A stretch of 64,000 nt of DNA. It comes from Rhodocyclales bacterium (GTDB taxonomy: Bacteria > Pseudomonadota > Gammaproteobacteria > Burkholderiales > Rhodocyclaceae). The translations under genes were made by a program, and so were the position numbers. Numbering within the stretch: position 1 is the first letter of the stretch; the number at the start of each line of letters is the position of its first letter. Where the stretch lies: NCBI GenBank assembly GCA_016235805.1, contig JACRIY010000006.1, positions 1 through 64,000 of the forward strand, read 5' to 3'. Below the pieces are notes generated by a model. That model was not told where the DNA came from, did not search any database, and saw nothing but the letters and a program-made list of their open reading frames with translations. Shown here piece by piece: positions 3,577 through 61,538 of this stretch.

Positions 3577-3600
3577 AAAGTCGGCGCTGGTGACACGGCG
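3577..3600 (+). repeat. Dispersed AGTCGGCGCTG repeat, copy 1
   Basis: Intergenic copy between the PHP gene and bzdV. The 24-nt unit starts AAAGTCGGCGCTGG and continues TGACACGGCG. It is identical to copy 8 (52435-52458, opposite strand) over all 24 positions. See the finding on this repeat family. Confidence 0.8.
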
Positions 3601-3636
3601 ACCAAACCACGCGACAAAGCAGCAGGAGGAGCGGAC

Positions 3637-6183
3637 ATGAATGCGGTTCAGGAAATCAAGTGGTGGAAGGCCAGCCGTCCCAGGGATATGGGCGAATTCG
3701 GCGAGACCGTCTGCATCCACATCGACTGCAACAAGATCGAGGTTCCCGCCGGTGCCTCGGTGCTCAATGCCGCGATCAATGCCGGCGTGTACATCCCGGC
3801 CTTGTGCGCCCATCCCGACCTGCCGCCCGCCATGCAGCGCGGCGCCGGCGGTGCCGGTTGCAACCTGTGCATGATCGAACTCGAAGGCGAGCCCGGCATG
3901 CGCAAGGCCTGCTCGACCACCGTGGCCGAAGGCATGCGCGTCACCACCAAGTCCGAAAAGATCTTCAAGTCGCGCCAGGAAAGCCTGGCCAAGATCCTCG
4001 GTCCGCACCCGCACGTCTGCCTCACCTGTCCGCAGCGCGACGGCTGCAGCCGCACCACCTGTTCCTTCGGCAATCCGCCCGAGACACGCTGCTGCGACAT
4101 CTTCCCGACCTGCGAGCTGCGCAAGATCGCCGATTTCGTCGGCATTCCCGGCACCACGCCGGGTTACAAGCCGGCATCGCTGCCGGTGATCAAAGATGAA
4201 CCCTTCTTCGATCGCGACTACAACCTGTGCATCGACTGCCGGCGCTGCCTGACGGCCTGCAACGACATCCGCGGCGTCGGCTGCCTGGAGGTCAAGGAAG
4301 TCGACACGCCGCAGGGCAAGCGCACCTACGTCGGCACCATCGCCGAAACCCTGGTCGATTCCGGCTGCAAGTTCTGCCAGGCCTGCGTCACGGTCTGCCC
4401 GACCGGCGCGCTGACCGATCGAACGCTCGATCCCGCGAAGCGCGAGGAGTCGATGGTGCCTTGCAAGAGCGCCTGCCCGGCCGGCATCGACGTGCCGCGC
4501 TACGTGCAGCTTGCCGCCGAAGGCAAATACGGCGAAGCCATTGCCGTGGTGCGCGAGAAGCTGCCCTTCCCGGGCATCGTCGGCCGTGCCTGTTTTGCCA
4601 TGTGCGAGGCGGCCTGCCGTCGCGGCAAACTCGATGACCCACTGTCGATCCGCACACTGAAGCGCGTCTCCGATGACAACGACACCGGCATCTGGCGCCA
4701 GTTTTCCAAACAACTCCCGCCCAGCGGGCGCAAGGCGGCGGTGATCGGTGCCGGTCCGGCCGGCCTGACCGTGGCCTGGTACCTGGCCAAAAAGGGCCAT
4801 GCCGTCACCGTATTCGATGCCCAGCCGTCCTCCGGCGGCATGGCGCGCTATGGCATTCCCTCCTATCGCGTGCCTGGCGATGTCATCGACCGCGAAGTCG
4901 GCGAGGTCGAGAAACTCGGCGTCAAGTTTCAGTACGACACGCGCATCGACAACATGGACGATCTGTTCGCCCAGGGATTCGAGGCCGCGTTCATCGGCAT
5001 CGGCTGCCAGGGCGGCGACAAGCTCGGCATTCCGGGCGACGACCTTGACGGCGTGGTCGATAGTCCGACCTATCTGCGCGCGGCCACCATGGGCCTAGTG
5101 AACACCCCGGATGGCATCCAGGTCGGCAAGAAAGTGGCCGTGATCGGCGGCGGCAACGTCGCCACCGACAACGCGCGTTCCTCGGTGCGTTATGGCGCCT
5201 CGGTGGACATGGTGTATCGCCGTACCCGCGAGGAAATGCCGGCGCGCGACGAAGAGTTCGACGGCTGCGTGGAGGAGGGCGTGAATATCCGCTACCTGCT
5301 GGCGCCGAAGAAGATCGAAGCGGGGCATAACGGCCATCGCCTGAACATCACCTATTCGAAGATGCAGTTGGGCGAGGCCGATGCCTCCGGCCGCCGCCGC
5401 CCGGTGGATACCGGCGAGGAAGTCACCGAGGGGGTGGACCTGGTGGTCGCCGCGGTCGGCCAACACCCGAACCAGGTTGCAGGTTTCGGCGTCGAGACCG
5501 ACAAGAAGGGGCGCATCGTTGTGCGCGCCGACTCCATGCTGACCAGCCGGCCCAAGGTCTATGCGGGTGGCGACGCGGTACTCGGCCCATCGACGCTGAT
5601 CGAGTCCATCGCCCAGGGCCGCGTCGCGGCGGGCGCCATGGACAAGCTTTTGGGTGGCGACGGCAACATCGAGGAAAAGCTGTTGCCCGACGGCTGGGAA
5701 ACCGACCCCAAGATTGGCCGCGACGAAGGCTTCAACAAGGTCCGCAAGTTCCACCCGATCATGCTGGCGCCGGAAAAGCGCAGCAACTGGGACGAGGTGG
5801 AATTGGGCTTCGACGATGCCACGGCGCGTGCCGAGGCCGCGCGCTGCTTCAAGTGCAACCTGGCGCCGACCATCGTCGATGCGCCGCTGCCGCCCGAGTC
5901 CTGGCTGGGTCTGGATGCTGCCACCGTGGCTGGCGTGAGCACCGAGTCGGGCGTGTATCAGTTGCTCGACAAGGACAAGAAGGTACTCGCGATCAAGGGC
6001 GTCGAGAACCTGCGCGAGGGGCTGGAAGCCATGCTGGAGAAGGCCGAGATCGCGCCTTACTTCACGGTCGAGGAAGCTCCCTTCTTCAGCCAGCGCGAGA
6101 ACCAGCTGGTGCAGGCCTACATGCAGCAGCACGGCAGCATGCCGCCGGGCGTGGGCGCCGACGAAATGGACGACCTGTTCTGA
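3637..6183 (+). CDS. bzdV: BzdV: Fe-S flavoprotein, putative NAD(P)H:ferredoxin oxidoreductase
   Basis: An 848-residue multidomain electron-transfer protein. Domains in order: N-terminal [2Fe-2S] plant-type domain (ALCAHPD, then GCNLCMIELEG, about residues 20-100); NuoG-like cysteine region (HPHVCLTCPQRDGC, about 125-170); two [4Fe-4S] ferredoxin motifs (CIDCRRCLTAC and CKFCQACVTVCP, about 195-260); a GltD-like part beginning with its own cluster site (CKSACPAGID), FAD-binding GAGPAGLTVAWYL near 370 and NAD(P)-binding GGGNVATDNARS near 508. The architecture matches BzdV, proposed to reduce the operon's ferredoxin from NAD(P)H, or to act with 2-oxoglutarate:ferredoxin oxidoreductase. Ribosome site caggagga precedes the ATG. 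It is essential context for feeding benzoyl-CoA reductase. Confidence 0.88.
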   Translation: MNAVQEIKWWKASRPRDMGEFGETVCIHIDCNKIEVPAGASVLNAAINAGVYIPALCAHPDLPPAMQRGAGGAGCNLCMIELEGEPGMRKACSTTVAEGMRVTTKSEKIFKSRQESLAKILGPHPHVCLTCPQRDGCSRTTCSFGNPPETRCCDIFPTCELRKIADFVGIPGTTPGYKPASLPVIKDEPFFDRDYNLCIDCRRCLTACNDIRGVGCLEVKEVDTPQGKRTYVGTIAETLVDSGCKFCQACVTVCPTGALTDRTLDPAKREESMVPCKSACPAGIDVPRYVQLAAEGKYGEAIAVVREKLPFPGIVGRACFAMCEAACRRGKLDDPLSIRTLKRVSDDNDTGIWRQFSKQLPPSGRKAAVIGAGPAGLTVAWYLAKKGHAVTVFDAQPSSGGMARYGIPSYRVPGDVIDREVGEVEKLGVKFQYDTRIDNMDDLFAQGFEAAFIGIGCQGGDKLGIPGDDLDGVVDSPTYLRAATMGLVNTPDGIQVGKKVAVIGGGNVATDNARSSVRYGASVDMVYRRTREEMPARDEEFDGCVEEGVNIRYLLAPKKIEAGHNGHRLNITYSKMQLGEADASGRRRPVDTGEEVTEGVDLVVAAVGQHPNQVAGFGVETDKKGRIVVRADSMLTSRPKVYAGGDAVLGPSTLIESIAQGRVAAGAMDKLLGGDGNIEEKLLPDGWETDPKIGRDEGFNKVRKFHPIMLAPEKRSNWDEVELGFDDATARAEAARCFKCNLAPTIVDAPLPPESWLGLDAATVAGVSTESGVYQLLDKDKKVLAIKGVENLREGLEAMLEKAEIAPYFTVEEAPFFSQRENQLVQAYMQQHGSMPPGVGADEMDDLF

Positions 6184-6185
6184 TC

Positions 6186-6440
6186 ATGGGCCAGGTCATC
6201 GATTTCTACACCGCGCGGGAATTGCGCCCCCTGCCCGCACCCGAGGCGCGCTGTCGCTGCACGATCTGCGGCGCCGACCTCTGGCACATCAACCGGTCGG
6301 GCGAGGTCTGCTGCGCCGACTGCGAAACCGTTTGTCCCTACCGGCTGCAAAGCGCACCGACGGCTGCCGGCAGGCGCCAGGCCGAATGCGCACTGGGCGA
6401 GACGATCACCGAATTCAACGAGGACGACATCCATGCCTGA
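6186..6440 (+). CDS. Small zinc-ribbon protein between bzdV and dch
   Basis: An 84-residue protein starting 2 nt after bzdV and overlapping dch by 8 nt, so probably translationally coupled to both. It carries a rubredoxin/zinc-ribbon-like knuckle pair: C-x2-C-G (RCTICGADLWHI; cysteines near 25 and 28) and C-x2-C (CCADCETVC; near 43-46) separated by a loop containing Trp and Gly. The tail (ETITEFNEDDIHA) is encoded by the translational leader of dch. A sister protein with the same C-x2-C-G...W...G...C-x2-C layout lies at 36209-36400 in the second aromatic cluster. Function unknown; metal binding is inferred. Confidence 0.78.
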   Translation: MGQVIDFYTARELRPLPAPEARCRCTICGADLWHINRSGEVCCADCETVCPYRLQSAPTAAGRRQAECALGETITEFNEDDIHA

Positions 6441-7206
6441 TTTCAAGTTCATTTCCTACGAAGACCAGGGCGACGTGCTGCGCCTGGCCATCAACCGGCC
6501 GCCCTACAACGTGCTCGACATCGCCACCATGGAGGAGATGAACACGGCGCTGGACATGGCGATGGAGAACACCACGGCCAAGGTGTTGCTGATCGCCGGC
6601 AACGGCGACAAGACCTTCTCTTCCGGCGTCGACGTGGTCGACCATACGCCGGACAAGGTGGTGAAGATGATCGACGTGTTCCACGGAATACTGAAGCGCC
6701 TGATGATGGTGCCGATCCCTACCGTGGCGGCCGTCAATGGTCCGGCCCTGGGTGGCGGCTGCGAGCTGGCGATCGCCTGCGACATGGTGGTGGCCTCGGA
6801 GAACGCCAAGCTGGGCCAGCCCGAGATCAAGCTCGGCGTGTTTCCGCCGATCGCCGCGATCCTGCTGCCGCGCCAGATCCCGATGACCAAGGTGATGGAA
6901 CTGCTGCTGGGCGGCGGCATCATCGACGCGAAGGAAGCGCACCGCCTTGGCCTGGTCAACGCCGTGTTCCCGAAGGAGAGCTTCGCCGCCGACAGCGCGA
7001 AGTTCCTCGAACAGTTCACCACGCTGTCGCGCGTGGCGCTGATCCACACCAAGAAGGCCGTCAAGGAAGCCGCGACGCGGCCTTTCTACGAGGCGCTGTT
7101 CCATATCGAGCAGCATTACCTCAAGGACCTGATGGCCACCGAGGATGCCAAGGAAGGCCTCAACTCCTTCATCGAAAAACGCAAGCCCGTCTGGAAAAAC
7201 AAATAA
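6433..7206 (+). CDS. dch: Cyclohexa-1,5-dienecarbonyl-CoA hydratase (BzdW/Dch)
   Basis: Crotonase-family enzyme (257 residues) that adds water to cyclohexa-1,5-diene-1-carbonyl-CoA, the product of benzoyl-CoA reductase, giving 6-hydroxycyclohex-1-ene-1-carbonyl-CoA. The oxyanion-hole region is visible as FSSGVDVVDH near residue 62 and NGPALGGGCELAIACD near 101-116, followed by GQPEIKLGVFPP. Its position directly before the matching dehydrogenase and hydrolase fixes the assignment within the large crotonase family. The ATG at 6433 is preceded by a 17-nt leader (6408-6424) that recurs exactly before oah. Confidence 0.92.
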   Translation: MPDFKFISYEDQGDVLRLAINRPPYNVLDIATMEEMNTALDMAMENTTAKVLLIAGNGDKTFSSGVDVVDHTPDKVVKMIDVFHGILKRLMMVPIPTVAAVNGPALGGGCELAIACDMVVASENAKLGQPEIKLGVFPPIAAILLPRQIPMTKVMELLLGGGIIDAKEAHRLGLVNAVFPKESFAADSAKFLEQFTTLSRVALIHTKKAVKEAATRPFYEALFHIEQHYLKDLMATEDAKEGLNSFIEKRKPVWKNK

Positions 7207-7213
7207 GGGAGAC

Positions 7214-8284: not shown

Positions 8285-8338
8285 AGCAGAATTTCCACAT
8301 TCAAGCAGCACCTACCGAATTCAACGAGGAGAAACGAC

Positions 8339-9469: not shown

Positions 9470-9480
9470 AAACAGAAAGC

Positions 9481-9562: not shown

Positions 9563-9594
9563 AAATGGGTTTTTTCTTGAATCGAGACGAAGAT

Positions 9595-10341
9595 ATGCAA
9601 CTTAAGGACAGAGTCGCGATTGTCACCGGCGCCGGGCAGGGCATCGGCGCCTGTGTCGCCGTCGCCTACGCCCGCGAGGGTGCCAAGGTCGCGGTGGTCG
9701 ACATGAACGGCGAGGCGGCCGACAAGGTTGCTGCCGCAATAGTCGGCGCTGGCGGTACGGCGATCGGCGTCGCCTGCGACGTGTCGAATCGCGAGCAGGT
9801 CGAGGCCATGGCGGCGAAGGTCAATGCCGCCTGGGGCCGCATCGACATCCTGGTGAACAACGCCGGCATCACGCGCACCGCGATGCTGCACAAGATGACG
9901 CCGGAGCAGTGGAACCAGGTGGTCGGCGTCCATCTCACCGGCGCCTTCAACTGCCTGCAGGCGGTGGTCGGCGGCATGATCGAGCGCAAGTACGGGCGGA
10001 TCATCTACGTCACCTCGGCGGCCGGCGTGCTCGGCACCATCGGCCAGATCAACTACAGCGCCGCCAAGGCCGGCATCCTCGGCATGACCAAGAGCACGGC
10101 GAAGGAACTGGCGCGCTACAACATCACCGCCAATGCCATCGCTCCGGGCGCGGCGACGCCGATGACCGAAGTAATCCGCACCGACGAGAAGTTCAAGGAC
10201 AAGTACCTCGACCGCATTCCCCTGGGTCGCTGGGCGGAACCGGAGGAGATCGCGCCGGTGTTCCTGTTCTTCGCCTCTGATGCTTCGGCTTACGTAACCG
10301 GACAGATACTCGCCGCCGACGGCGGCATGACAATTCACTGA
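9595..10341 (+). CDS. bzdZ: SDR-family 3-hydroxyacyl-CoA dehydrogenase (BzdZ-like)
   Basis: Classical short-chain dehydrogenase/reductase, 248 residues from the ATG at 9595. Cofactor motif [12 protein letters not shown] (residues 12-23), NNAG at about 87-90, catalytic Ser in VTSAAGVLG near 138 and the Y-x3-K pair in [12 protein letters not shown] near 152-156. In bzd operons this position is taken by BzdZ, thought to oxidise 3-hydroxypimelyl-CoA in the beta-oxidation that follows ring opening; a FabG-like role is the alternative. An in-frame start at 9565 would add ten residues but lies in the inverted-repeat region with no ribosome site. The gene carries copy 2 of the dispersed repeat. Confidence 0.82.
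9738..9762 (+). repeat. Dispersed AGTCGGCGCTG repeat, copy 2 (in CDS)
   Basis: Within the SDR gene; reads AATAGTCGGCGCTGG then CGGTACGGCG, encoding A-I-V-G-A-G-G-T-A. The core 11-mer is exact and the ACGGC block is conserved at the family spacing. SDR proteins have variable sequence here, so some of the match could come from coding constraint. Confidence 0.6.
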
Positions 10342-10351
10342 AGGAACTTAC

Positions 10352-11533: not shown

Positions 11534-11613
11534 GCATCCCGCCGAGGATGCGCAGGATGCGGCAACACGTATTACGATAAGCCAGCCGCCACGGAGCGGA
11601 GGAGGAGAGAGTC

Positions 11614-13194: not shown

Positions 13195-13207
13195 GGGGCT
13201 GGAGCCC

Positions 13208-16741: not shown

Positions 16742-16765
16742 CGCCGTATCGCCAGCGCCGACTTT
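16742..16765 (-). repeat. Dispersed AGTCGGCGCTG repeat, copy 3
   Basis: Intergenic copy in the gap before the livH-like gene, 17 nt upstream of its ATG, read on the minus strand: AAAGTCGGCGCTGG then CGATACGGCG. It extends on the 5' side as TTCAA, shared with copy 9. Confidence 0.8.
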
Positions 16766-20109: not shown

Positions 20110-20910
20110 ATGCATTCCGGTTTCATCACCGCCGGCGGCCACCGCCTCGAATACCAGCTGATCCCGGTGCACCAGATCAATCGCCCGACGCTGGTGCTGC
20201 TGCACGAAGGCCTGGGTTCGGTCGCCATGTGGCGCGATTTCCCGGCGCGCCTGGCATCGGCCACCGGCTGTCGCACCCTGGTCTATTCGCGCTACGGCTA
20301 CGGCCAGTCCGACTTGCTGGAAGCGCCGTTCGGCACCGACTACATGCACCGCGAAGGGCGTGACACCCTGCCTGAATTGCTCGCCGCGCTGGAGATCGAC
20401 AACCCCGTGCTGGTCGGCCATTCCGACGGCGCCTCGATCGCCCTGCTGCATGCCGGCGCCGGACACCGGGTCGCGGGCGTGGTGGTGATGGCGCCGCACT
20501 GCTTCGTCGAGGATATTTCCATACGCAGCATCGCGGCGGCCAAGGTCGCCTTCGAAACCACCGACCTGCCGGCCAAGCTCGGCAAATACCACCGCGATGT
20601 CCATCGCACCTTTTGGGGCTGGAACGACATCTGGCTGCACCCGGATTTCCGCGCCTGGAACATCGAGGATTGCCTGCCGAATATCACCTGCCCGATCCTG
20701 GCGATCCAGGGCGAGGACGACGAATACGGCACCATGGCGCAGATCGAGGCGATCGCCGCGGGCGCGCGAAACTCGGCTGGCGTCGAACTGCTCAAGCTTG
20801 CCGACTGCCGGCATTCCGCGCACAAGGACCAACCGCTGGCGGTGATCGAGGCGATCAACCGCTTCGCGGAAAACCTGGATTTTGCCGTACCGTCAGCGCC
20901 GACTTTCTAA
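20110..20910 (+). CDS. Alpha/beta-hydrolase at end of importer operon
   Basis: A 266-residue alpha/beta-hydrolase. Nucleophile elbow GHSDGAS (Ser near 103), acid GEDDEYGT (Asp near 201-202) and His in DCRHSAHKDQP (near 239) give a plausible triad; the oxyanion region is LLHEGLGSVAMWRDF. It could be a thioesterase (for instance salvaging stalled aromatic acyl-CoA) or an ester hydrolase releasing the imported acid; the sequence does not decide. The last residues (AVPSAPTF) and stop region are encoded by copy 4 of the dispersed repeat, so the C terminus may have been altered by it. Confidence 0.84.
   Translation: MHSGFITAGGHRLEYQLIPVHQINRPTLVLLHEGLGSVAMWRDFPARLASATGCRTLVYSRYGYGQSDLLEAPFGTDYMHREGRDTLPELLAALEIDNPVLVGHSDGASIALLHAGAGHRVAGVVVMAPHCFVEDISIRSIAAAKVAFETTDLPAKLGKYHRDVHRTFWGWNDIWLHPDFRAWNIEDCLPNITCPILAIQGEDDEYGTMAQIEAIAAGARNSAGVELLKLADCRHSAHKDQPLAVIEAINRFAENLDFAVPSAPTF
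20883..20906 (-). repeat. Dispersed AGTCGGCGCTG repeat, copy 4 (3' end of CDS)
   Basis: Covers the last codons of the hydrolase gene; on the minus strand AAAGTCGGCGCTGA then CGGTACGGCA. A terminator hairpin begins right after the stop codon. Confidence 0.8.
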
Positions 20911-33332: not shown

Positions 33333-34946
33333 ATGGCTTACTCGGCGCATGTCGATACTTTCACCCGCGACAACCTGCCGCCACTCGAGGCGCAGCCGGA
33401 GTTCCTGTTCGACCTGCCGGAACTGAAGTTCCCCGAGCGCATGAACTGCGCGACGGAACTGCTCGACCGGCACGTGGCCGAAGGCCGGGGAGGGCGGGTC
33501 TGCATCCAGGCGCCCAACCTGCGCTGGACCTATGCCGACCTGCAGGAGAAGGCCAACCGCATCGCCAACGTGCTGGTGAAGGACCTCGGCGTGGTGCCCG
33601 GCAACCGCGTGCTGCTGCGCGCGCCGAACAACCCGATGATGGCCGCCTGCTGGTTCGCGGTGATGAAAGTCGGCGCTGTCGCCACGGCGACCATGCCGCT
33701 CTTGCGCGCAAAGGAACTCAAGCATGTGATCACCAAGGCCAAGGTCACGCATGCCTTGTGCGACCTGCGCCTGGCGGAGGAACTCAAGCTGGCGGCCGCC
33801 GAATCGCCGGAGCTGAAACACATCCGCTGGTTCAACGATGCTTCCGCCGATGGCCTCGAAGCCGCGATGGCGAAGCAGTCCGCCGAGTTCAGCAACGTCG
33901 ATACCGCGCGTGACGACACCTGCATCCTCGCCTTCACTTCCGGTACCACCGGCCAGCCCAAGGCCACCATGCACTTCCACCGCGACGTCATGGCTTCCTG
34001 CGTCTGCTGGCCACCCTACGTGCTGCGGCCGACGCCCGACGACATCTTCATGGGCACGCCGCCGCTGGCCTTCACCTTCGGCCTCGGCGGCCTGCTGCTG
34101 TTCCCGCTCGCGATCGGCGCCTCGACGGTGCTGCTGGAGCAGGGCGCTCCGCAGGACCTGGTCGACGCGGTGCTGAAATACAAGGCGACGATCCTGTTCA
34201 CGGCACCGACTTCCTACCGCGCGATTGCCGCCATTGCCGGCCCTTTGCGCGGCAGCACGCTGAGGAAATGCGTGTCCGCCGGCGAGGCACTGCCGGCGGC
34301 GACGCGTGCCCTGTGGAAGGAAGCCACCGGCATCGAGATGATCGACGGCATCGGTGCCACCGAGCTGATGCACATCTTCATCTCGGCTGACGAGAAGGAA
34401 GCACTGCCCGGCGCCACCGGCAAGGTGGTGCCCGGTTACGTCGCCTGCATCATGGACGACGAGGGCAAACCGGCGAAGACGGGCGAGATCGGCAAACTGG
34501 CGGTCAAGGGCCCGACCGGCTGCCGCTACCTCGCCGACGAACGCCAGGCCAGCTATGTCAGGAACGGCTGGAACTACACGGGCGACGCCTACGCACTGGA
34601 TGCCGAGGGGTATTTCCACTACCACTCGCGCACCGACGACATGATCATCTCGGCCGGCTACAACATCGCCGGACCCGAAGTCGAAGACGCGCTGCTGCGC
34701 CATCCCAAGGTCGCCGAATGCGGCGTCATCGGCGTGCCGGACGACGAGCGCGGCCAGGTGGTGAAGGCCTTCGTCGTGCTGCGCCCCGGCACCGATGCCA
34801 CGGCGGAGACGGCAAAGGAACTGCAGGACTACGTCAAGCAGAGCATCGCCCCCTACAAGTATCCGCGTCAGGTCGAGTTCGTCGCCGGCCTGCCGCGCAC
34901 CGAAACCGGCAAACTGCAGCGCTTCCGCCTGCGGGCGCCAAGATAA
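33333..34946 (+). CDS. Benzoate-CoA-ligase-family enzyme (2-aminobenzoate-CoA ligase-like)
   Basis: AMP-forming CoA ligase, 537 residues. P-loop FTSGTTGQPKATMHFHRDV near 206, GIGATELMHIFISADE near 345, YHSRTDDMIISAGYNIAGPEVE near 430, C-terminal Lys in RTETGKLQRFRLR. The MPLLRAKEL segment and the overall wording resemble 2-aminobenzoate-CoA ligases. It is the second acid-activating enzyme in this cluster, distinct from the EntE-like one, so either two substrates or two steps (acid entry and re-activation) are involved. It contains copy 5 of the dispersed repeat. Confidence 0.85.
   Translation: MAYSAHVDTFTRDNLPPLEAQPEFLFDLPELKFPERMNCATELLDRHVAEGRGGRVCIQAPNLRWTYADLQEKANRIANVLVKDLGVVPGNRVLLRAPNNPMMAACWFAVMKVGAVATATMPLLRAKELKHVITKAKVTHALCDLRLAEELKLAAAESPELKHIRWFNDASADGLEAAMAKQSAEFSNVDTARDDTCILAFTSGTTGQPKATMHFHRDVMASCVCWPPYVLRPTPDDIFMGTPPLAFTFGLGGLLLFPLAIGASTVLLEQGAPQDLVDAVLKYKATILFTAPTSYRAIAAIAGPLRGSTLRKCVSAGEALPAATRALWKEATGIEMIDGIGATELMHIFISADEKEALPGATGKVVPGYVACIMDDEGKPAKTGEIGKLAVKGPTGCRYLADERQASYVRNGWNYTGDAYALDAEGYFHYHSRTDDMIISAGYNIAGPEVEDALLRHPKVAECGVIGVPDDERGQVVKAFVVLRPGTDATAETAKELQDYVKQSIAPYKYPRQVEFVAGLPRTETGKLQRFRLRAPR
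33666..33689 (+). repeat. Dispersed AGTCGGCGCTG repeat, copy 5 (in CDS)
   Basis: In the CoA-ligase gene, encoding K-V-G-A-V-A-T-A. Reads AAAGTCGGCGCTGT then CGCCACGGCG. The encoded segment is itself fairly conserved in this enzyme family, so this copy is less certain than the intergenic ones. Confidence 0.5.
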
Positions 34947-35355: not shown

Positions 35356-35739
35356 ATGGATGATGAGCGCTGGCTACGCATCCTGCAACGCATGCCCGAG
35401 GTCGAGGAGGCAGATGGACCGCCGCTCGCCGTGGCCTTCATCGGGGCTGAGGACTATGCCGCGAAGCGCGGGCAGGCCTGGCTCTGGTGGCCGGGCAGTC
35501 GCGCGCGCACGACGGGGCCGGTCGGCTTCGACGGCGGGTTTCCGGCCGACTGGGGCCTGCTGCTGGTGATGAACGACATCGCCATCGCAAGAGTCGGCGC
35601 TGACGGCACGGCGTGCATGGCCCACCTGGCGCGCCTGCTCGACATCAAGGCCTTCGTCCTGCGCCTGCGCGACGAACTGGACGAGTCCGGCGTATTGGAA
35701 TTCATTGAAACCCTGGAACTGGCAACGCCCAAGCATTGA
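35356..35739 (+). CDS. Uncharacterised 127-residue protein
   Basis: No family recognised. A soluble, acidic protein with an N-terminal helix (DDERWLRILQRMPEVEEA), a tryptophan-rich middle (AWLWWPGSRARTTGP, ADWGLLLVMND) and a helical C terminus (LRLRDELDESGVLEFIETLEL). It begins 6 bp after the RidA gene and its stop overlaps the next ATG, so it belongs to the operon. Copy 6 of the dispersed repeat encodes R-V-G-A-D-G-T-A in its middle. Confidence 0.65.
   Translation: MDDERWLRILQRMPEVEEADGPPLAVAFIGAEDYAAKRGQAWLWWPGSRARTTGPVGFDGGFPADWGLLLVMNDIAIARVGADGTACMAHLARLLDIKAFVLRLRDELDESGVLEFIETLELATPKH
35589..35613 (+). repeat. Dispersed AGTCGGCGCTG repeat, copy 6 (in CDS)
   Basis: Inside the 127-residue orphan gene. 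Reads AAGAGTCGGCGCTGA then CGGCACGGCG, in the same reading frame as copies 2 and 5 (V-G-A-x-x-T-A). Confidence 0.65.
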
Positions 35740-36407: not shown

Positions 36408-36431
36408 CGCCGTGTGGCCAGCGCCGTCCGC
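36408..36431 (-). repeat. Degenerate dispersed repeat, copy 11
   Basis: Reads cgccgtgtggccagcgccg on the plus strand, matching the family over most of its 5' two thirds but losing the terminal GACTTT (gtccg instead). Intergenic, between the zinc-ribbon gene and the OYE gene. Probably a decayed copy. Confidence 0.4.
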
Positions 36432-46069: not shown

Positions 46070-46870
46070 ATGTACGGATTTGAATATCATCGCCCAGGCA
46101 CGTTGGCCGACGCCGCCGCACTGCTGGGCAAACTGGGGGAGAGCAAGCCGCTGGCCGGCGGACAGACCCTGATCGCCACCATGAAGCAGCGCCTGGCGCA
46201 GCCGTCCGATCTCGTCGATCTGGGTGGCATCGCCGAAATGCGCGGCATCAAGGTTGAGGGCGACACAATCAGCATCGGCGCCCTGACGCGCCACGCCGAG
46301 GTCGCCGCCTCGGCAGAGGTCAAGCAGCGCATTCCCGCGCTGGCCCGCCTCGCCAGCACCATCGGCGATCGTCAGGTGCGCGCCATGGGTACCATCGGTG
46401 GCTCGGTGGCCAACAACGATCCGGCTGCCGACTATCCGGCCGGCGTGCTCGGATTGGACGGCACCGTGGTGACCAACAAGCGCCGTATCACCAGCGCCGA
46501 CTTTTTCACCGGCATGTACGAGACGGCCTTGCAGCCGGGCGAACTGATCACCTCGATCAGTTTTCCGATACCGAAGCGGGCGGGCTATGCCAAGTTTCCC
46601 AACCCGGCCTCACGCTTTGCCCTGGTTGGCGTCTTCGTCAGCCAAGCGGCGAACGGCAGTGTGCGCGTCGCCGTTACAGGCGCCGGCCCCGGTGTGTTCC
46701 GCGTGGCGGAGCTGGAGAAGGCGCTCGCCGCCAACTTCTCGGTCGATGCGATTGCCGGGGTCAAGGTGGCGGCGTCGGGTCTCAACACCGATCTTCACGC
46801 CGATGCAGAGTATCGTGCCCATCTGATCGGCGTAATGGCCAAACGCGCCGTGGCGGCCGCGCTGACCTGA
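46070..46870 (+). CDS. coxM: Molybdenum hydroxylase FAD subunit (CoxM type)
   Basis: A 266-residue FAD-binding subunit: AGGQTLIATMKQRLAQP near residue 27 and TIGGSVANNDPAADYPAG near 107 are the two FAD pyrophosphate motifs (AGGxS/T and TIGGxxAxxDPxxD). It passes electrons to NAD or a quinone. Gene order S-L-M differs from the M-S-L order of carboxydotrophs. The ATG at 46070 follows gaggagaag. Copy 7 of the dispersed repeat encodes R-R-I-T-S-A-D-F where relatives usually read R-x-I-x-A-D-D-F. Confidence 0.9.
   Translation: MYGFEYHRPGTLADAAALLGKLGESKPLAGGQTLIATMKQRLAQPSDLVDLGGIAEMRGIKVEGDTISIGALTRHAEVAASAEVKQRIPALARLASTIGDRQVRAMGTIGGSVANNDPAADYPAGVLGLDGTVVTNKRRITSADFFTGMYETALQPGELITSISFPIPKRAGYAKFPNPASRFALVGVFVSQAANGSVRVAVTGAGPGVFRVAELEKALAANFSVDAIAGVKVAASGLNTDLHADAEYRAHLIGVMAKRAVAAALT
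46481..46504 (-). repeat. Dispersed AGTCGGCGCTG repeat, copy 7 (in CDS)
   Basis: In the FAD-subunit gene; minus strand AAAGTCGGCGCTGG then TGATACGGCG, preceded by GAA. The encoded R-R-I-T-S-A-D-F matches the R-R-V-T-S-A-D-F of copy 8 in an unrelated gene. Confidence 0.7.
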
Positions 46871-52348: not shown

Positions 52349-53964
52349 TCTTCGGCGAATTCCCGGTCGAGGAATGCGAAGGCCTGCTGCTGGCCCACAG
52401 CCTGCGGCTCGCCGGGCGCACTTTGAAGAAAGGACGCCGTGTCACCAGCGCCGACTTTCCGGACCTGATCGCCGCCGGACACCGGCGCATATACGGCGCG
52501 CGCCTCGCGGCGGGCGACCTGACCGAGGATGCCGCCGCCGCTGCGGTGGCAGCCCTGCTGCAGGCCGATGGCATCGTCGCGCGCAAGGCCTACACCGGAC
52601 GATGCAACCTCCACGCCACACAGCGCGGGCTGGTCACGGTCGATGCCGGCATCATCGACCGGATCAATGCCATCGACGAGGCCGTCACCGTCGCCACGCT
52701 GGCGCCGCTCTCTGCGGTGCGCGCCGGCGCCGTGGTTGCCACGGTCAAGGTCATTCCGCTGGCGGTGGGGCAAACGGTCATCGATCGCTGCGCGAGCGAG
52801 GCCGGGCGCGGTGTGGCGTTGGGCCTGCACCCTTTTGCGCAGAAACGCGCCGCGCTGATCGTCAGCGAACAGGCCGGCGACCCGGAAAAGAACTACGCCT
52901 CCGCTGTCACCAGTAGCCGGCGTCGCATCGAGGACCTCGGCAGCCATCTCGGCCTGGTGCAGCGCTGCGCCCACCGGCGCGATGCGGTGGCGCTGGCCCT
53001 GCGCGAAAGCCTGGCGGCCGGTTGCGACCTGCTCATGATCGCCGGCGCCACGGTACCCAAGGACAGGGCCGACACCATTCCCTCGGCCATCGTCGCCGCC
53101 GGCGGCGAGATCGTCCATTTCGGCATGCCGGTCGAGCCCGGCAACATGCTGTTGCTGGCCCGCATCGGCGCGGTGCCGGTGATCATCCTGCCCGGTTGTG
53201 CGCGCTCGCGCAAAACCAACGGCCTCGACTGGGTGCTGCAGCGCATGTTGGCCGGCCTGCCCATGGGCGCCGCCGAAATCAAGGCGATGGGTGTCGGCGG
53301 CCTGATCCGCAGCGCGCCCGAGGCCGAGGAAGATCCCGACGCGGTGGAGCCCGCTCCGCAGCGAGTCGCTGCCGGGCGTCGCATCGCGGCTCTGGTGCTC
53401 GCCGCCGGCAGCAGCCGGCGCATGGCCGGCAGCAACAAGCTGCTGCAGCCGGTGGCCGGCGTGCCCATGGTGCGCCGCGCGGCGAATGCGGCGCTGGCCT
53501 CGCGCAGCGTGGCGATGGTGGTCGTTACAGGGCACGCGGCCGATGCGGTACGCGCCAGCCTCGTTGGGCTGGACCTGGAATTTGCCCACAACGCCGACCA
53601 TGAATCCGGCATGGCCTCGACGCTGCGCGCAGGATTGCGGGCACTGCCAGCCGACACCGATGCCGTGGTGGTGGTGCTGGGCGACATGCCCTTCGTTTCC
53701 GCCGCGCACATCGACCGCCTGATTGCTGCCTTCGATCCCGCGCGCGGCAATATCGTGGTGCCGATGAAGGATGGCCGCCGCGGCAATCCAATCGTCTGGC
53801 CGCGTGCGTTCTTCGATGAAATGCAGCAGGTGCAGGGTGACGTCGGCGCCCGCGAACTGTTGCAGCGCCACGCCGATCGCGTGGACGTCGTGGCCTTCGA
53901 CGACGACGCCATTTTCGCCGACGTCGATACGCCGGAGGCGCTGCGTGCGCTGGAGCCGCGATGA
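52345..53964 (+). CDS. MoeA-like / MobA-like (MocA) fusion for Mo cofactor
   Basis: A 539-residue fusion. Residues 1-335 are a molybdopterin-binding (MoeA/MogA-fold) domain with MIAGATVPKDRADTIPSAI near 233 and GMPVEPGNMLLLARIG near 259; residues about 345-539 are a nucleotidyltransferase of the MobA/MocA type with LVLAAGSSRRMAGSNKLLQP near 353 and VVVLGDMPFVS near 445. MocA-type domains make the cytosine dinucleotide cofactor used by the xanthine oxidase family, so this protein probably finishes the cofactor for the CoxL-type enzyme. GTG start overlaps the previous stop (GTGA). Copy 8 of the dispersed repeat lies near the N terminus. Confidence 0.85.
   Translation: MIFGEFPVEECEGLLLAHSLRLAGRTLKKGRRVTSADFPDLIAAGHRRIYGARLAAGDLTEDAAAAAVAALLQADGIVARKAYTGRCNLHATQRGLVTVDAGIIDRINAIDEAVTVATLAPLSAVRAGAVVATVKVIPLAVGQTVIDRCASEAGRGVALGLHPFAQKRAALIVSEQAGDPEKNYASAVTSSRRRIEDLGSHLGLVQRCAHRRDAVALALRESLAAGCDLLMIAGATVPKDRADTIPSAIVAAGGEIVHFGMPVEPGNMLLLARIGAVPVIILPGCARSRKTNGLDWVLQRMLAGLPMGAAEIKAMGVGGLIRSAPEAEEDPDAVEPAPQRVAAGRRIAALVLAAGSSRRMAGSNKLLQPVAGVPMVRRAANAALASRSVAMVVVTGHAADAVRASLVGLDLEFAHNADHESGMASTLRAGLRALPADTDAVVVVLGDMPFVSAAHIDRLIAAFDPARGNIVVPMKDGRRGNPIVWPRAFFDEMQQVQGDVGARELLQRHADRVDVVAFDDDAIFADVDTPEALRALEPR
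52435..52458 (-). repeat. Dispersed AGTCGGCGCTG repeat, copy 8 (in CDS)
   Basis: Near the 5' end of the MoeA/MocA fusion, encoding R-R-V-T-S-A-D-F. Identical over 24 nt to copy 1, which is intergenic and 49 kb away. Confidence 0.8.
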
Positions 53965-56213: not shown

Positions 56214-56364
56214 CCGCTCCGGTAGCAGCATCCTTCCCCGGGCCGCCGCATGCCACAGCGGTGTCGGCCTCCCGTGCCGGGGTACCGGCGACCTAGGAAG
56301 AAAGGGGCTTCCGCCCGCCTTTTCGAGACTCGCTCGCCGCCGCGCATGAGCTAGTCTGCATCCC

Positions 56365-57300: not shown

Positions 57301-57380
57301 CGTCGCCAGGGCTGTAGTGCTAGGATTTGAGTGCGGGCTTCCATGGCGCCAACCCTGGTGCGGAAAGGAGGCTGCGGTCA

Positions 57381-59591
57381 ATGAGATTCCCTTCGCGAAC
57401 TCCCCCCTCTCGCCAGAAGATCGATAACTCGATCCGCAGCGACTTTTCCGTCCGCTTTTTCCAGCAGGCCGTCGCCGCGATTCTGATCGGCCTGATCGCT
57501 TTTCTGGTGGTGATTCGCATCGCCGTCCCCGACCAGACGGTACGCATGGTGCCACCCGCGATCGGCATCGTGCTGATGGGCGTGATCTGGTGGCTGATCG
57601 GGCGTGGGCGGCTACAGGCCGCGGCCATGCTCTTCGCCAGCGGCGCCTGGCTGGTGTCCACGATAATCTGCCTGTTTTACGGCGGGGTGCATGCGGCCAT
57701 CGTGGTCGTCTTCCCGCTGCTGGTTGTGTATGTCGGTTGGGCGATCAGCATGCGCGCGGCAGCGGGTTTCACCGGGTTGATCGTGGCCACGATCATCGCA
57801 CTGGTGCTAGCGGAGTCCATGGGAAGCCTGCCGACTCCGCCGCCGACGCCACTGGCGGTATTCCTCGTGGTGCAGATCACCTACGTTGTCGTCGCGCTGA
57901 TCCTGGTGGGGTCGCTGGTGCTGGTGTACCAGCGACGGGTGGGCGAACTGGAGCGCGAACGGCAGTTCTCGGCGGAGATCATCAATTCGCTGCCGGGCAT
58001 GTTCTACATGTTCGATGCCAGCGGTCGCTTCATCCGCTGGAACCGCCGATTCAATGACGCCACCGTGTACAGCGACAGCGAACTGGCGCAAATGAAAGCC
58101 ACCGACTTCTTTCGGGACGAGGACAGGGAACAGATCGCGGCGGTCGTGAGCAGGGTGTTCGCGGAAGGGCACGCGGATATCGAGGCGGACCTTGTGCCCG
58201 GTCAGGGGCCGGCAGTGCCGTGCCGGTTCACGGGTGTTCGCGCCACCATCGGTGACGAATCTTTCCTGCTCGGGGTCGGCATCGACATCAGCGAGGACAG
58301 GCGGAACCAGGCCAAACTGGAGGAGTACCGGCAGCACCTGGAACAAATGATCGAGGCGCGCACGGCCGACCTGTCGATCGCCAAGGAGGCTGCGGAAGCC
58401 GCCAACCGCGCAAAGAGCACCTTCCTCGCCAACATGAGCCACGAACTGCGCACGCCTATGAACGCGATCATGGGCATGACCAACCTGGCGATGCGGCGCA
58501 CCATGGATGCCCGGCTGCTGGATCACCTGGAAAAGATCAACCAGGCCTCCCACCATCTGCTGGCGGTGATCAACAGCATCCTCGATATTTCCCGGATCGA
58601 GGCCGACCGGCTGGTGCTGGAACAGATCGACTTCACGCCGTTCGCGGTGCTGGACAACCTGCCGGCGCTGGTCGGCTACAAGGCGGCGGAAAAGGGGTTG
58701 GCGCTGGAACTCGACGTCGCGCCGGAAGCGGGCACCGTGGCGGTGTGCGGCGATCCGATGCGCATCGGCCAGATCCTGCTCAACCTTGCCGACAATGCAC
58801 TCAAATTTACCGAGCGGGGCAAGGTCGTGGTGCGCCTGCGACTGGCTGAAGACACGGCGGACAAGGTACTCCTGCGATTCGAGGTCGAAGACACGGGCAT
58901 CGGCATTTCGGCGAACGACCAGAAGCGGATTTTCGCCGCCTTTGAACAGGCTGACGGTTCGATGACGCGCAAGTACGGCGGCAGTGGCCTGGGTTTGGCG
59001 ATCAGCCGCCGTCTCGCGCGCCTGATGGGCGGCGACATCACGGTGACCGGCCAGCCGGGCGAGGGCAGTTGTTTCGTGTTTACCGTGCGCCTGCGCAAGT
59101 CGGCGGGCGCCGTCGCGCCAGCGCCGACTTTTGAACCCGGCAAGGCCGGCGATCGGTTGCGGCAGGACTTTGCCGGCAGCCGGATCATGCTGGCCGAGGA
59201 TGAGCCGGTGAACTGCGAGGTGGCGCGCACGCTACTCGAGGCACAGGGACTGGTGGTGGATGTGGCAGCCGACGGTGTCGAGGCCGTCGCCCTGGCGCGG
59301 CATACGCCCTATGCGCTGATCCTGATGGACATGCAGATGCCGAACCTCAACGGAGCCGACGCGACGCGTGCGATCCGGACGCTTCCGGCCCACGCGCGTA
59401 CTCCGATCCTGGCCATGACGGCCAATGCCTTCGCCGAAGACCGCTTGGTCTGCCTCGCCGCCGGCATGGACGATCACCTGCCCAAGCCGGTCGAACCGGA
59501 TCGGCTGCATGAGGCGGTGTTGCGGTGGCTGTTGCGTTCGCGCGAGAAGATCGGTGCCGGCGCGGCCGGCAGCGCGGTGATCAGTTCGTAA
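57381..59591 (+). CDS. Hybrid sensor histidine kinase with PAS and receiver domains
   Basis: A 736-residue membrane kinase: six hydrophobic segments within about 25-195 (7TMR/MASE-like input), a PAS domain (about 215-325, INSLPGMFYMFDASGRFIRWNRRF), coiled linker, dimerisation domain with His354 in MSHELRTPMNAIMG, ATPase domain with LNLADNALKFTERG, VEDTGIGIS and GGSGLGLAISRRL, then a receiver domain with Asp650 in LILMDMQMPNLNG and TANAF/LPKPVEP. The ATG at 57381 follows aaaggagg. The linker before the receiver (VAPAPTFEPG) is encoded by copy 9 of the dispersed repeat. The output partner is not in the window. Confidence 0.89.
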   Translation: MRFPSRTPPSRQKIDNSIRSDFSVRFFQQAVAAILIGLIAFLVVIRIAVPDQTVRMVPPAIGIVLMGVIWWLIGRGRLQAAAMLFASGAWLVSTIICLFYGGVHAAIVVVFPLLVVYVGWAISMRAAAGFTGLIVATIIALVLAESMGSLPTPPPTPLAVFLVVQITYVVVALILVGSLVLVYQRRVGELERERQFSAEIINSLPGMFYMFDASGRFIRWNRRFNDATVYSDSELAQMKATDFFRDEDREQIAAVVSRVFAEGHADIEADLVPGQGPAVPCRFTGVRATIGDESFLLGVGIDISEDRRNQAKLEEYRQHLEQMIEARTADLSIAKEAAEAANRAKSTFLANMSHELRTPMNAIMGMTNLAMRRTMDARLLDHLEKINQASHHLLAVINSILDISRIEADRLVLEQIDFTPFAVLDNLPALVGYKAAEKGLALELDVAPEAGTVAVCGDPMRIGQILLNLADNALKFTERGKVVVRLRLAEDTADKVLLRFEVEDTGIGISANDQKRIFAAFEQADGSMTRKYGGSGLGLAISRRLARLMGGDITVTGQPGEGSCFVFTVRLRKSAGAVAPAPTFEPGKAGDRLRQDFAGSRIMLAEDEPVNCEVARTLLEAQGLVVDVAADGVEAVALARHTPYALILMDMQMPNLNGADATRAIRTLPAHARTPILAMTANAFAEDRLVCLAAGMDDHLPKPVEPDRLHEAVLRWLLRSREKIGAGAAGSAVISS
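59108..59131 (-). repeat. Dispersed AGTCGGCGCTG repeat, copy 9 (in CDS linker)
   Basis: Between the ATPase and receiver domains of the hybrid kinase; minus strand AAAGTCGGCGCTGG then CGCGACGGCG. Preceded by TTCAA as in copy 3. Confidence 0.75.
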
Positions 59592-60042
59592 CGGCGATCC
59601 AGCCGGCGGCAGCTTCCAGCGCCGCGGCGAGGTTGGCCTGAGCGGCGTCGCTCAGGGGTTCGCCGAGTTCGAAAGCTTGGGCGCGGATCGCCAGCAGCCA
59701 GCAGGGTGGCGGTTCGCCGTCGTCGATGTCTGCAAATACCTTGAGCACGGCCTGCGGACTCATGGCGTGGGTGGTGAAACTGGCATCGCGTGCGGCCTCG
59801 ATGCGCGCCAGAGTGCACGGCGGAGCGGCGTCGAGGCTGGCGTCCACGAACAGCACGCGGCGACGGCCTTGCAGGTCGAGCGCGTGTTCCACCTGCAACT
59901 GGAAATCGGTCAGAAAGTCGACCTCGCCCCATTCCGGATGGCGGGCGGCGAGCGCGGTGAAATGCTCGACGAAGAGCGGCCCCAATGCGTCGTCGCCACG
60001 GCTGGGATTGCCCCAGCCGAAGACCAGCGTCGGCGCCGTCAA
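59581..60042 (-). CDS. hoxW: Hydrogenase maturation protease (HoxW/HycI-like)
   Basis: A 153-residue M52-family endopeptidase that trims the C-terminal peptide of the [NiFe] large subunit after nickel insertion. Visible: GWGNPSRGDDALGP at 9-22 with the nickel-binding Asp/Glu positions, TDFQLQVEHALDL near 45-57, LFVDASLD near 64 and THAMSPQAVLKVF near 91. It follows hoxH with a 4-nt overlap and runs convergently into the hybrid kinase, sharing its last 11 bp. Confidence 0.86.
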   Translation of the reverse strand: MTAPTLVFGWGNPSRGDDALGPLFVEHFTALAARHPEWGEVDFLTDFQLQVEHALDLQGRRRVLFVDASLDAAPPCTLARIEAARDASFTTHAMSPQAVLKVFADIDDGEPPPCWLLAIRAQAFELGEPLSDAAQANLAAALEAAAGWIAVTN

Positions 60043-61538
60043 GGAAGTTCGCGAATTTCGCGCGTAAGGCCGCGATGGTCGCGCGTGGCCTCGTCGAGTA
60101 CCGTACCGTCAGCGCCGACTATTGCGATTTCCAGCGGCATTTGCCCCAGCGCATGCGTGGCGCAGGACAGGCAGGGGTCGAAGGCGCGGATGGCGATCTC
60201 GATGTGATTGAGCAGGCCCTCGGTGATCTCGACTCCGTCGAGGTACTGCTTGGCCACCTCGCGCACTGCCGTGTTCATGGCCTGGTTGTTGTGCGTGGTG
60301 GAAACGATCAGGTTGGCGCGGGTCACCTGGTCGTTCTCGTCGACCCGGTAGTGGTGGATCAGTGTGCCGCGCGGCGCCTCGATGACGCCGACTCCGCGTT
60401 CCTGGCGCTGGCCGGTAGCCATGAGGTCGTGGCCGACGATGTCGTCGTCGTGCAGCAGGTCCTTGATGGTTTCGGCGGCGTGCAGCATCTCGATCATGCG
60501 CGCCCAGTGGTAGCCCAGCGTGGCGCCGGCGGCGCTGCCGCCGTCGAAGGCGAGGAAGGTCTCGCGCTCCCTGTCCGCCAGCGGCGTGGGGATGTGGTCG
60601 CACATCGTCACGCGCGACAGCGGGCCGACGCGATAGGAGCCGTCTTCGGTACCGAGCGACTTGAAGAAGGGAAACTTCATGTAGGACCAGGGCTTGACGT
60701 CCTCGCCGATCACGTCCCAGTAGCGGCTGTAGTCGAAATGGTCGAACAGCGTCTTGCCGTCGATGTCGCGCGCGCGCAGGCCACCGTGGTAAAGGTCCAT
60801 CGCGCCGTCGGCGCGCACCAGGCACATGCCGGCCGAGCGGAAGCGGCCGAAGGCGTTGTACTGCGTCAGGTTTTGTTCGAACAGGCCGCGGATGATGCCC
60901 ACCGCGTCGCGGCTCCAGGCCACCATCTGGTAGGCGTCCTTGAGCAACTCGGCGCGTTCTTCGGCCGAGAGCGACTTGTTCACCCCGCCCGGAATCGAAC
61001 CCGTGCCGTGCACCCGCTTGCCGGCGGTCATGCGTATCACTTCCTGGCCGTACTTGCGCAGCAGCACGCCCTTCTTGGCCACCTCGGGGTGTGCGGCGAC
61101 GACGCCGACGATGTTGCGTTTGGCCATGTCCGAGCCAAAGCCGAACAGCAGGTCGGGCGAGGACAGGTGGAAGAAGTGCAGGGCATGCGATTGCAGCATC
61201 TGGCCGGCGTGCATCAGGCGGCGGATCTTGTCTGCGGTCGGCGTCAGTTGCTTGATGCCGAGCATCATGTCCAGCGCCTTGGAGGCCGCGAGGTGGTGCG
61301 AGACCGGGCAGATGCCGCAAAGGCGCTGCACCATCACCGGCACTTCCCAGTAGGGGCGGCCCTGGATGAATTTTTCGAAGCCACGGAACTCGACGATGTG
61401 CAGGCGCACCTGGTGCACCTTGTTGTCGTCGTCGAGCAGGATGGTGACCTTGCCGTGGCCTTCCACCCGCGACACGGGATCGATGGCGACGCGGCGCAGC
61501 TTTTCGGGAGATTTGGCGGTTTCGAGTTCGAATGTCAT
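60039..61538 (-). CDS. hoxH: NAD-reducing [NiFe] hydrogenase large subunit HoxH
   Basis: Catalytic subunit, 499 residues, of the cytoplasmic bidirectional hydrogenase HoxFUYH (group 3d), oxidising H2 with NAD+. Nickel ligands are in the N-terminal LCGICPVSHHLAASKAL and the C-terminal DPCLSCATH motifs. N-terminal RVAIDPVSRVEGHGKVTI is typical. The precursor tail after the DPCxxCxxH His is about 37 residues; part of it is encoded by copy 10 of the dispersed repeat. The first gene upstream (hoxY) is 234 bp away, an unusual gap for this operon. Confidence 0.93.
   Translation of the reverse strand: MTFELETAKSPEKLRRVAIDPVSRVEGHGKVTILLDDDNKVHQVRLHIVEFRGFEKFIQGRPYWEVPVMVQRLCGICPVSHHLAASKALDMMLGIKQLTPTADKIRRLMHAGQMLQSHALHFFHLSSPDLLFGFGSDMAKRNIVGVVAAHPEVAKKGVLLRKYGQEVIRMTAGKRVHGTGSIPGGVNKSLSAEERAELLKDAYQMVAWSRDAVGIIRGLFEQNLTQYNAFGRFRSAGMCLVRADGAMDLYHGGLRARDIDGKTLFDHFDYSRYWDVIGEDVKPWSYMKFPFFKSLGTEDGSYRVGPLSRVTMCDHIPTPLADRERETFLAFDGGSAAGATLGYHWARMIEMLHAAETIKDLLHDDDIVGHDLMATGQRQERGVGVIEAPRGTLIHHYRVDENDQVTRANLIVSTTHNNQAMNTAVREVAKQYLDGVEITEGLLNHIEIAIRAFDPCLSCATHALGQMPLEIAIVGADGTVLDEATRDHRGLTREIRELP
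60099..60123 (-). repeat. Dispersed AGTCGGCGCTG repeat, copy 10 (hoxH 3' end)
   Basis: On the coding strand of hoxH: AATAGTCGGCGCTGA then CGGTACGGTA, encoding I-V-G-A-D-G-T-V in the C-terminal peptide that the protease removes. The core is exact, the last block has one change (ACGGT). Confidence 0.75.

What the first reader, a model, noticed from the sequence alone, without database searches (positions are those of the whole stretch)
3577..60123. A dispersed ~24-bp repeat with an invariant AGTCGGCGCTG core in and between genes
Ten copies contain the exact 11-mer AGTCGGCGCTG, and each continues after 5 variable nucleotides with ACGG: 3577, 9738, 16742(-), 20883(-), 33666, 35589, 46481(-), 52435(-), 59108(-), 60099(-); an eleventh at 36408(-) is degenerate. 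One exact 11-mer would be expected well under once by chance in 64 kb on both strands. Copies 1 and 8, 49 kb apart in unrelated places, agree over 24 nt. Copies occur in both orientations, in intergenic gaps, at a gene end, in interdomain linkers and in frame within coding sequence. This resembles DNA-uptake signal sequences or another genome-wide recognition word more than a transposable element, because no terminal repeats or target duplications are visible. I do not know a description of this exact element.
Basis: partly seen in the sequence, partly recalled or inferred. Interest (0 to 1): 0.82.

Follow-up and report, generated by a model that had tools for sequence, protein, structure and literature searches.

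The report
Clade-wide 24-bp DNA word in bacteria
Hundreds of copies of one 24-base DNA word are scattered through the genomes of one group of environmental bacteria, and through phages and integron-like cassettes; it is kept nearly unchanged while the DNA around it mutates, much like the tags that two other bacterial families use to recognise their own DNA during uptake.

Summary
All ten 11-mers are present (0.15 expected). The host genome has 430 (reversed control 8) and 393 copies of AGTCGGCGCTG-N5-ACGG (control 1). The consensus, RARAGTCGGCGCYGGCGRYACGGCGA, carries about 35 bits. It is in 31 of 31 genomes of the genus and abundant in six Rhodocyclaceae genera (36 of 297 genomes have 40 or more; the 258 genomes of other genera have at most 13). 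Sampled carriers form one clade with low-copy lineages inside. Aligned coding sites change by substitution; there is no replication polarity. In close orthologues the fixed bases diverge 1.7%, flanks 14.6%, spacer 23.5%. Real copies also lie in phages and integron-like arrays.

Best reading: a third family-level DNA-uptake-type word, kept by biased lateral transfer. Against it: ComEA was found in 2 of 31 motif-rich genomes, no tested competence gene tracks the word, and no reader was found. Another reader or transfer route stays open. Transposon, Chi/KOPS, REP, terminator and protein-motif readings fail.

The parts
3577..3600 (+). copy 1, intergenic (14 nt after one gene, 38 nt before the next)
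   Evidence: 15 fixed bases intact in 4 of 4 aligned close relatives (L298-L301: G017, G008, G030, G018; 87-90% identity over 600 bp) while spacer and flanks differ; a fifth close relative, G009, was not in that alignment; absent in the more distant congeners aligned
9739..9762 (+). copy 2, in frame inside a coding sequence (..[10 protein letters not shown]..)
   Evidence: fixed bases intact in G008, G018, G022, G028; one change in low-copy G027; no indel
16742..16765 (-). copy 3, intergenic
   Evidence: intact in G022, one change in G018 and in G027
20883..20906 (-). copy 4, antisense at the 3' end of a coding sequence (20-base core ends 6 nt before the gene end)
   Evidence: no aligned orthologue recovered
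33666..33689 (+). copy 5, inside a coding sequence (..KVGAVATATM..)
   Evidence: intact in G008 and G018; seven changes, no indel, in low-copy G027
35590..35613 (+). copy 6, inside a coding sequence (..RVGADGTACM..)
   Evidence: intact in G008, one change in G018 and in G027, no indel
36408..36431 (-). degenerate copy (GGACGGCGCTGGCCACACGGCG), probably a real variant
   Evidence: 2 mismatches; the GGACGGCGCTGG variant occurs 3 times in 400 kb of G002
46481..46504 (-). copy 7, antisense inside a coding sequence
   Evidence: no aligned orthologue
52435..52458 (-). copy 8, antisense inside a coding sequence
   Evidence: intact in G008 (alignment 76% identical); one change in G018
59108..59131 (-). 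copy 9, antisense inside a coding sequence
   Evidence: the only aligned stretch (G008, 65% identity, perhaps not an orthologue) lacks it
60099..60122 (-). copy 10, in frame inside a minus-strand coding sequence (..IVGADGTVLD..)
   Evidence: no aligned orthologue

Best explanation
The element is the recognition word of a sequence-biased DNA-transfer system, most likely DNA uptake (natural transformation), that arose once in the ancestor of a Rhodocyclaceae clade with Sulfuritalea-like organisms. A surface or periplasmic protein binds about 24 bp of double-stranded DNA: a left block ending in GGCG, two free bases, then ACGGCG. DNA carrying the word is taken up, or otherwise transferred, preferentially, so alleles with the word replace alleles without it. 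SHOWN: the word, its over-representation, its clade distribution with low-copy lineages, substitution-only change at aligned coding sites, maintenance in orthologues, lack of polarity in G002, presence in phages and integron-like arrays. INFERRED: that a trans-acting reader exists.
For: Copies far above the reversed controls and a Markov model. About 35 bits (sites chosen at 4 or fewer mismatches of 22, which inflates this somewhat). 215 single-mismatch copies beside 393 perfect ones. One RpoB clade, support 100/98, holds the sampled carriers, with the low-copy G016, G293 and G076 inside (22 of 30 genomes gave a sequence, genera g32 and g62 not in the tree, midpoint root). A 287-kb sample of G016 shows decayed relics and no replacement word of comparable enrichment. 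In ordered comparisons at 85% identity or more between motif-bearing genomes 40 of 48 sites are intact; fixed bases diverge 1.7%, spacer 23.5%, flanks 14.6%; against low-copy G027, 0 of 8 are intact (comparisons not independent). 80 of 120 classified sites in genes and 40 of 120 in the 13% noncoding DNA (p 7e-9); convergent gaps 12 of 40 (p 0.009) (some sites are orthologues of each other). For comparison, 65% of H. influenzae uptake sequences lie in ORFs, with an excess in noncoding DNA (PMC1939737, passage). 23 of 45 sampled sites on the leading strand of closed chromosome G002, origin and terminus placed by GC skew. 0 sites in 8 low-GC 4-kb windows against 68 in 108 others (the 0.58 threshold was mine). 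Nine copies in a 6.1-kb integron-like array (Poisson p 5e-8 at one per 9 kb), as expected if the word aids lateral transfer of cassettes. ComEC in 32 of 32, DprA over cut-off in 29 of 32, type IV pilins in 57 of 57 tested genomes.
Against: A full ComEA was found in only 2 of 31 motif-rich genomes tested (TIGR00426 over cut-off in 5 of 38 genomes); the search's first look is lossy, so absence is not proven. ComEC, DprA and pilins are also present in the low-copy genomes G016, G293 and G305, and the copy-rich G005 lacks a DprA hit over cut-off, so none of them tracks the word. The ComP_DUS pilin hits (31 of 32) are not specific: with a G177 pilin as query, most of the strongest matches are in motif-free genera. 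Density (about 100-120 per Mb in the own genome) is below the 200-800 per Mb quoted for Pasteurellaceae (PMC12616744, passage); the word is longer than the 9-12 nt known; close inverted pairs are rare (1 among 482 sites held) against about 10% reported for known uptake sequences (PMC1939737, passage). I found no report of natural transformation in this genus (one search listed none with Sulfuritalea).
Confidence: 0.5

Rival explanations
1. A chromosome-organising or other cytoplasmic DNA-binding protein of a new kind binds the word all over the nucleoid; selection on its binding keeps the sites.
For: 0-5 sites in each of 20 sampled 20-kb stretches of G002, no strand bias and no obvious origin or terminus clustering, though not formally tested; strong conservation of the fixed bases; ComEA not found in most carriers.
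Against: Known organisers that I recall (MatP, Noc, SlmA, ParB) use far fewer, shorter, mostly palindromic and regionally placed sites. Dense copies in integron-like arrays and copies in many phages are not expected. Repeated loss argues against an essential role.
Confidence: 0.2
2. Sequence-biased lateral transfer by another vehicle, for example a gene-transfer agent or transducing phage that packages from the word, or a relaxase that nicks it.
For: Same drive logic as uptake without needing ComEA; mean spacing 7-9 kb; phages carry it.
Against: In phages the word lies in terminase, portal, anti-repressor, methyltransferase and unknown genes, or nearest to head, repressor, integrase, endolysin and tail genes (20 proteins), not at one packaging place. 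No gene-transfer-agent or relaxase search was made.
Confidence: 0.13
3. Protection or identity mark in the cell (Chi-like): DNA with the word is spared by, or recombined after, a host nuclease.
For: The word contains GCTGGYG, close to E. coli Chi (recalled); phages carry it.
Against: No leading-strand bias, 23 of 45; far longer than the Chi sites I recall.
Confidence: 0.07
4. Dispersed mobile repeat (REP, MITE or similar).
For: Intergenic excess; trace copies in other genera can be clustered, for example 5 within 41 kb of G135, two of them in a repeated segment.
Against: About two thirds lie in coding sequence in tolerated frames; aligned coding orthologues show substitutions without indels; no conservation beyond about 26 bp; not palindromic.
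Confidence: 0.04
5. Codon or protein-motif artefact (VGAGDTA and the like).
For: 42 of 80 coding sites are in one frame.
Against: The other 38 use four further frames on both strands, and 40 of 120 sites are noncoding; fixed bases are kept at silent positions in close relatives.
Confidence: 0.01

Closest known systems
Uptake signal sequences (USS) of Pasteurellaceae
   Same: Hundreds of copies of an asymmetric word, about 65% in genes with noncoding excess (PMC1939737, passage), family-specific; USS also has an extended motif beyond its core (PMC7811141, passage).
   Different: Different sequence and family; 24-26 bp with two fixed blocks and two free bases; lower density; few inverted pairs; no uptake test; ComEA mostly not found.
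DNA uptake sequences (DUS) of Neisseriaceae
   Same: Betaproteobacteria; clade-wide word, with family members that lack it (PMC3630211, passages).
   Different: DUS is 10-12 nt with about 900-3,300 copies in the genomes quoted there; dialects with a shared CTG core; ComP receptor known. Here one word, no dialect found, reader unknown.
Chi and KOPS
   Same: Over-represented words across the chromosome.
   Different: Those are short and strand-polarised (recalled); this one is long and unpolarised.
HIP1 of cyanobacteria
   Same: Iterated word at high frequency, low in some relatives.
   Different: HIP1 is an 8-bp palindrome linked to methyltransferases (PMC4390886, start of abstract in listing); this word is long and asymmetric.

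Membership tests
DUS/USS-type DNA uptake sequence | word strongly over-represented genome-wide on both strands | tested here: met
DUS/USS-type DNA uptake sequence | most copies inside genes, with an excess in noncoding DNA | tested here: met
   80 of 120 in coding, 40 of 120 in 13% noncoding (home-made gene finder)
DUS/USS-type DNA uptake sequence | shared by a family or genus, missing in some lineages | tested here: met
DUS/USS-type DNA uptake sequence | promotes uptake or transformation of DNA carrying it | not testable with these tools
   needs an uptake assay
DUS/USS-type DNA uptake sequence | competence machinery present in carriers (type IV pili, ComEA, ComEC, DprA) | tested here: inconclusive
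   ComEC 32/32, DprA over cut-off 29/32, pilins 57/57, ComEA in 2 of 31 motif-rich genomes
DUS/USS-type DNA uptake sequence | dedicated receptor such as ComP tracking the word | tested here: inconclusive
   ComP_DUS profile hits 31 of 32 including low-copy genomes; related pilins in motif-free genera too
Chi / KOPS | orientation bias with replication | tested here: not met
   23 of 45 leading strand in G002
REP/MITE/transposable repeat | insertion boundaries or target duplications against empty sites | tested here: not met
   substitutions only at aligned coding sites of the window; intergenic alignments have gaps and are not informative
REP element | palindromic and extragenic | tested here: not met
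   asymmetric consensus; 80 of 120 in genes
Intrinsic terminator | inverted pairs forming a stem downstream of genes | tested here: not met
   one inverted pair closer than 120 bp among 482 sites

The most novel reading that the evidence does not exclude
A previously undescribed DNA-recognition system of one Rhodocyclaceae clade, not the known ComEA-dependent uptake route: an unknown reader of a 24-bp bipartite word that acts on chromosome, phages and integron cassettes alike and drives or keeps hundreds of copies, i.e. a third and mechanistically new self-DNA tag.
Probability: 0.35. Interest if true: 0.92.

Novelty: new variant of a known kind. Interest (0 to 1): 0.8.

Why it matters
[quoted passage not shown] A third, independent, environmental case with a longer bipartite word would make an old question testable outside those two families: are such words kept by selection for self-DNA or by drive of a biased receptor? 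Nature has supplied controls: congeners and sister species in which the word has decayed. The word in phages and integron-like arrays suggests that mobile DNA exploits the same tag. It may also mark DNA that has moved from this clade into other genera.

Tried and rejected
Replication polarity: the listing showed only plus-strand sites for G002; one search showed this was the listing order. A new dialect in low-copy G016: no word of comparable enrichment in 287 kb; the two top words looked at were mostly local (GTTGTGGCAG, 6 of 9 in one contig; TCTGCGCCTCT, 5 of 7 in one contig), the others were not looked at. A competence gene that tracks the word: ComP_DUS, ComEC, DprA, ComEA and a pilin query gave no discriminator. 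Inverted-pair terminators: rare. Regular spacing: CV 0.84 for 68 gaps on seven of the contigs listed, not clearly different from random. By eye I thought phage copies lie beside attC sites, crude scans, found attC-like folds near copies in L236 (5 of 5, then 4 of 5) and L113 (2 of 9, then 4 of 9) and near 1 of 251 other viral sites, no more than the random control. Trace copies in other genera as cassettes: no attC-like fold near any of 41 sites. Phage packaging site: copies lie in or near unrelated phage genes. Trees used wrong reading frames and were discarded; one search replaces them. An earlier count said the copy at 3579 is conserved in 5 of 5 relatives; one of the five was the own genome, so it is 4 of 4. 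A search for uptake sequences in phage HP1 found no paper.

Full report
OBSERVATION. All ten exact AGTCGGCGCTG copies are in the window, each followed by five bases and ACGG. Dinucleotide shuffles give 0.15 and an order-5 Markov model 0.3. In the window's own genome (3.83 Mb, 130 contigs, 80% complete) there are 430 copies of the 11-mer (8 for the reversed control), 393 of the bipartite 15-base form (1 control) and 608 with at most one mismatch (3 control).

THE WORD. From 83 sites with at most 4 mismatches to 22 specified bases, in the window and 400 kb of the closed genome G002, the consensus is R-A-R-A-G-T-C-G-G-C-G-C-Y-G-G-C-G-R-Y-A-C-G-G-C-G-A, about 35 bits, with no clear conservation outside. 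In G002 it dominates the enriched 11-mers: 51 against 2.1 expected. The commonest near-miss in G002 is C for T in GCTG.

DISTRIBUTION. It is in 31 of 31 genomes of the genus (7 to 522 copies; controls 0 or 1). In 297 genomes of the family, drawn from a larger group, 36 have 40 or more copies of a slightly different form; they fall in six genera (g1, g32, g43, g62, g70, g88; 39 genomes). Within those genera G016 (11), G293 (1) and G305 (4) are low. The 258 genomes of other genera have at most 13. An RpoB tree of 22 genomes puts the six sampled carriers, the low-copy G016 and G293, and G076 (13 copies) in one clade with support 100/98 (22 of 30 genomes gave a sequence, g32 and g62 not among them). 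One origin and several losses is the simplest account. In a 287-kb sample G016 keeps decayed relics and has no replacement word of comparable enrichment.

PLACEMENT. I classified 124 different sites in the window, G002, own-genome loci and parts of G008, G018 and G022: 80 in coding sequence, 40 intergenic, 4 at ends of loci; coding fraction 0.87 by a home-made gene finder. Some of these sites are orthologues of one another. Noncoding excess p = 7e-9; convergent gaps 12 of 40 against 14% of intergenic length, p = 0.009. Coding sites use five of six frames (42, 10 and 0 sense; 13, 13 and 2 antisense). On the closed chromosome G002, 23 of 45 sampled sites are on the leading strand, with origin and terminus placed by GC skew of 20 samples. 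No site lies in 8 low-GC 4-kb windows against 68 in 108 others. Only one inverted pair closer than 120 bp was seen among 482 sites in all loci then held.

EVOLUTION. At aligned coding sites of the window, relatives differ by substitutions without indels; at intergenic sites the alignments show gaps in more distant pairs. In 48 ordered comparisons at 85% identity or more between motif-bearing genomes, 40 sites are intact and 5 have a gap; the 15 fixed bases diverge 1.7%, the spacer 23.5%, the flanks 14.6%. Both directions and repeated sites are counted, so the comparisons are not independent. At 80-85% identity 10 of 27 are intact (16 with a gap); below 80%, 2 of 9 (5 with a gap). Against the low-copy genome G027, 0 of 8 at 85% or more, 0 of 8 at 80-85% and 0 of 1 below are intact; the fixed bases there diverge 7.5%, 30% and 20%. 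So the word is kept where it is abundant, turns over with distance, and is lost in G027.

MOBILE DNA. Genes containing the word, or the nearest called genes up to about 5 kb away, include terminase, portal, major head, tail, endolysin, integrase, repressor, anti-repressor and methyltransferase genes (30 proteins scanned, 5 without a family), so several of these contigs are temperate phages and the word has no fixed place in them. L113, the end of a Sulfuritalea MAG contig, has nine copies in 6.1 kb, all on one strand, among attC-like palindromes; L236, labelled viral, has five copies in tandem units of about 316 bp with attC-like sites. Against one per 9 kb, the own-genome rate, nine in 6.1 kb has p = 5e-8. 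The arrays are described from sequence only; no integrase was sought and ORF content was not tested. Trace copies in other genera are mostly real words (40 of 41 in the 20 stretches I chose) and can be clustered, for example five within 41 kb of G135, two of them in a repeated segment, which suggests transferred DNA.

MACHINERY. ComEC is in 32 of 32 genomes; DprA over cut-off in 29 of 32, missing in G000, G001 and the copy-rich G005; ComP_DUS profile hits in 31 of 32, low-copy genomes included (0 of 14 control genomes), but a G177 pilin hits 57 of 57 genomes, and most of its best matches are in motif-free genera, so this is not specific. A short ComEA was found in 5 of 44 genomes and in 2 of 31 motif-rich ones (TIGR00426 over cut-off in 5 of 38). 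The remaining hits, apart from two shorter frames outside the clade and one, lie in long open frames (about 780-1,720 aa) that I take to be Tex-like (recalled, not tested). Such hits are missed in some genomes, so the search is lossy and absence is only likely. No reader was found.

INTERPRETATION. The pattern - long asymmetric word, hundreds of copies, both strands, genes and gaps, near misses, clade-specific, repeatedly lost, maintained without polarity - matches DNA uptake sequences better than any other known kind that I could think of. PMC12616744 (passages read) calls Neisseriaceae and Pasteurellaceae the only families known to have them. The word differs in sequence, in its length and bipartite form, in lower density and in rare inverted pairs. 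Missing ComEA and the absence of any tracking competence gene hold my confidence at 0.5. Literature: the 11-mer occurs in five papers of the library, unrelated by their titles (listing only); 'DNA uptake sequence' with Rhodocyclaceae gives none; searches listed no description. PMC5217627, PMC3630211, PMC12616744, PMC7811141 and PMC1939737 were seen as passages only. Subscription papers are mostly not held.

Noticed in passing
L113:1-6122 (JALHPU010000019.1): Integron-like cassette array at the end of a Sulfuritalea MAG contig with nine copies of the word in about 6 kb; whether the word-bearing cassettes lack ORFs was not tested.
   Followed up: partly
L236:600-2400 (IMGVR_UViG_3300009945_000063): Five tandem units (316 bp, one enlarged to 385), with attC-like palindromes and one copy of the word each, on a contig labelled viral; the label may be wrong.
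   Followed up: partly
G135:C1:1461266-1502264 (L427, L428): Five copies of the word within about 41 kb of a closed chromosome of a motif-free genus, two in a repeated segment; a sequence like the surroundings of one copy also occurs in G071 (L439). Probably a transferred element.
   Followed up: no
L054:19144-19202: One perfect inverted pair of the word between convergent genes; it could act as a terminator.
   Followed up: partly
G016 L338:17900-19900: Clustered GTTGTGGCAG words, perhaps CXXCH haem motifs of a multihaem cytochrome.
   Followed up: no
L190, L201, L212 (IMG/VR): The word stands just before what looks like the same gene (start ATGAGTTGGCT...) in three phage contigs.
   Followed up: no
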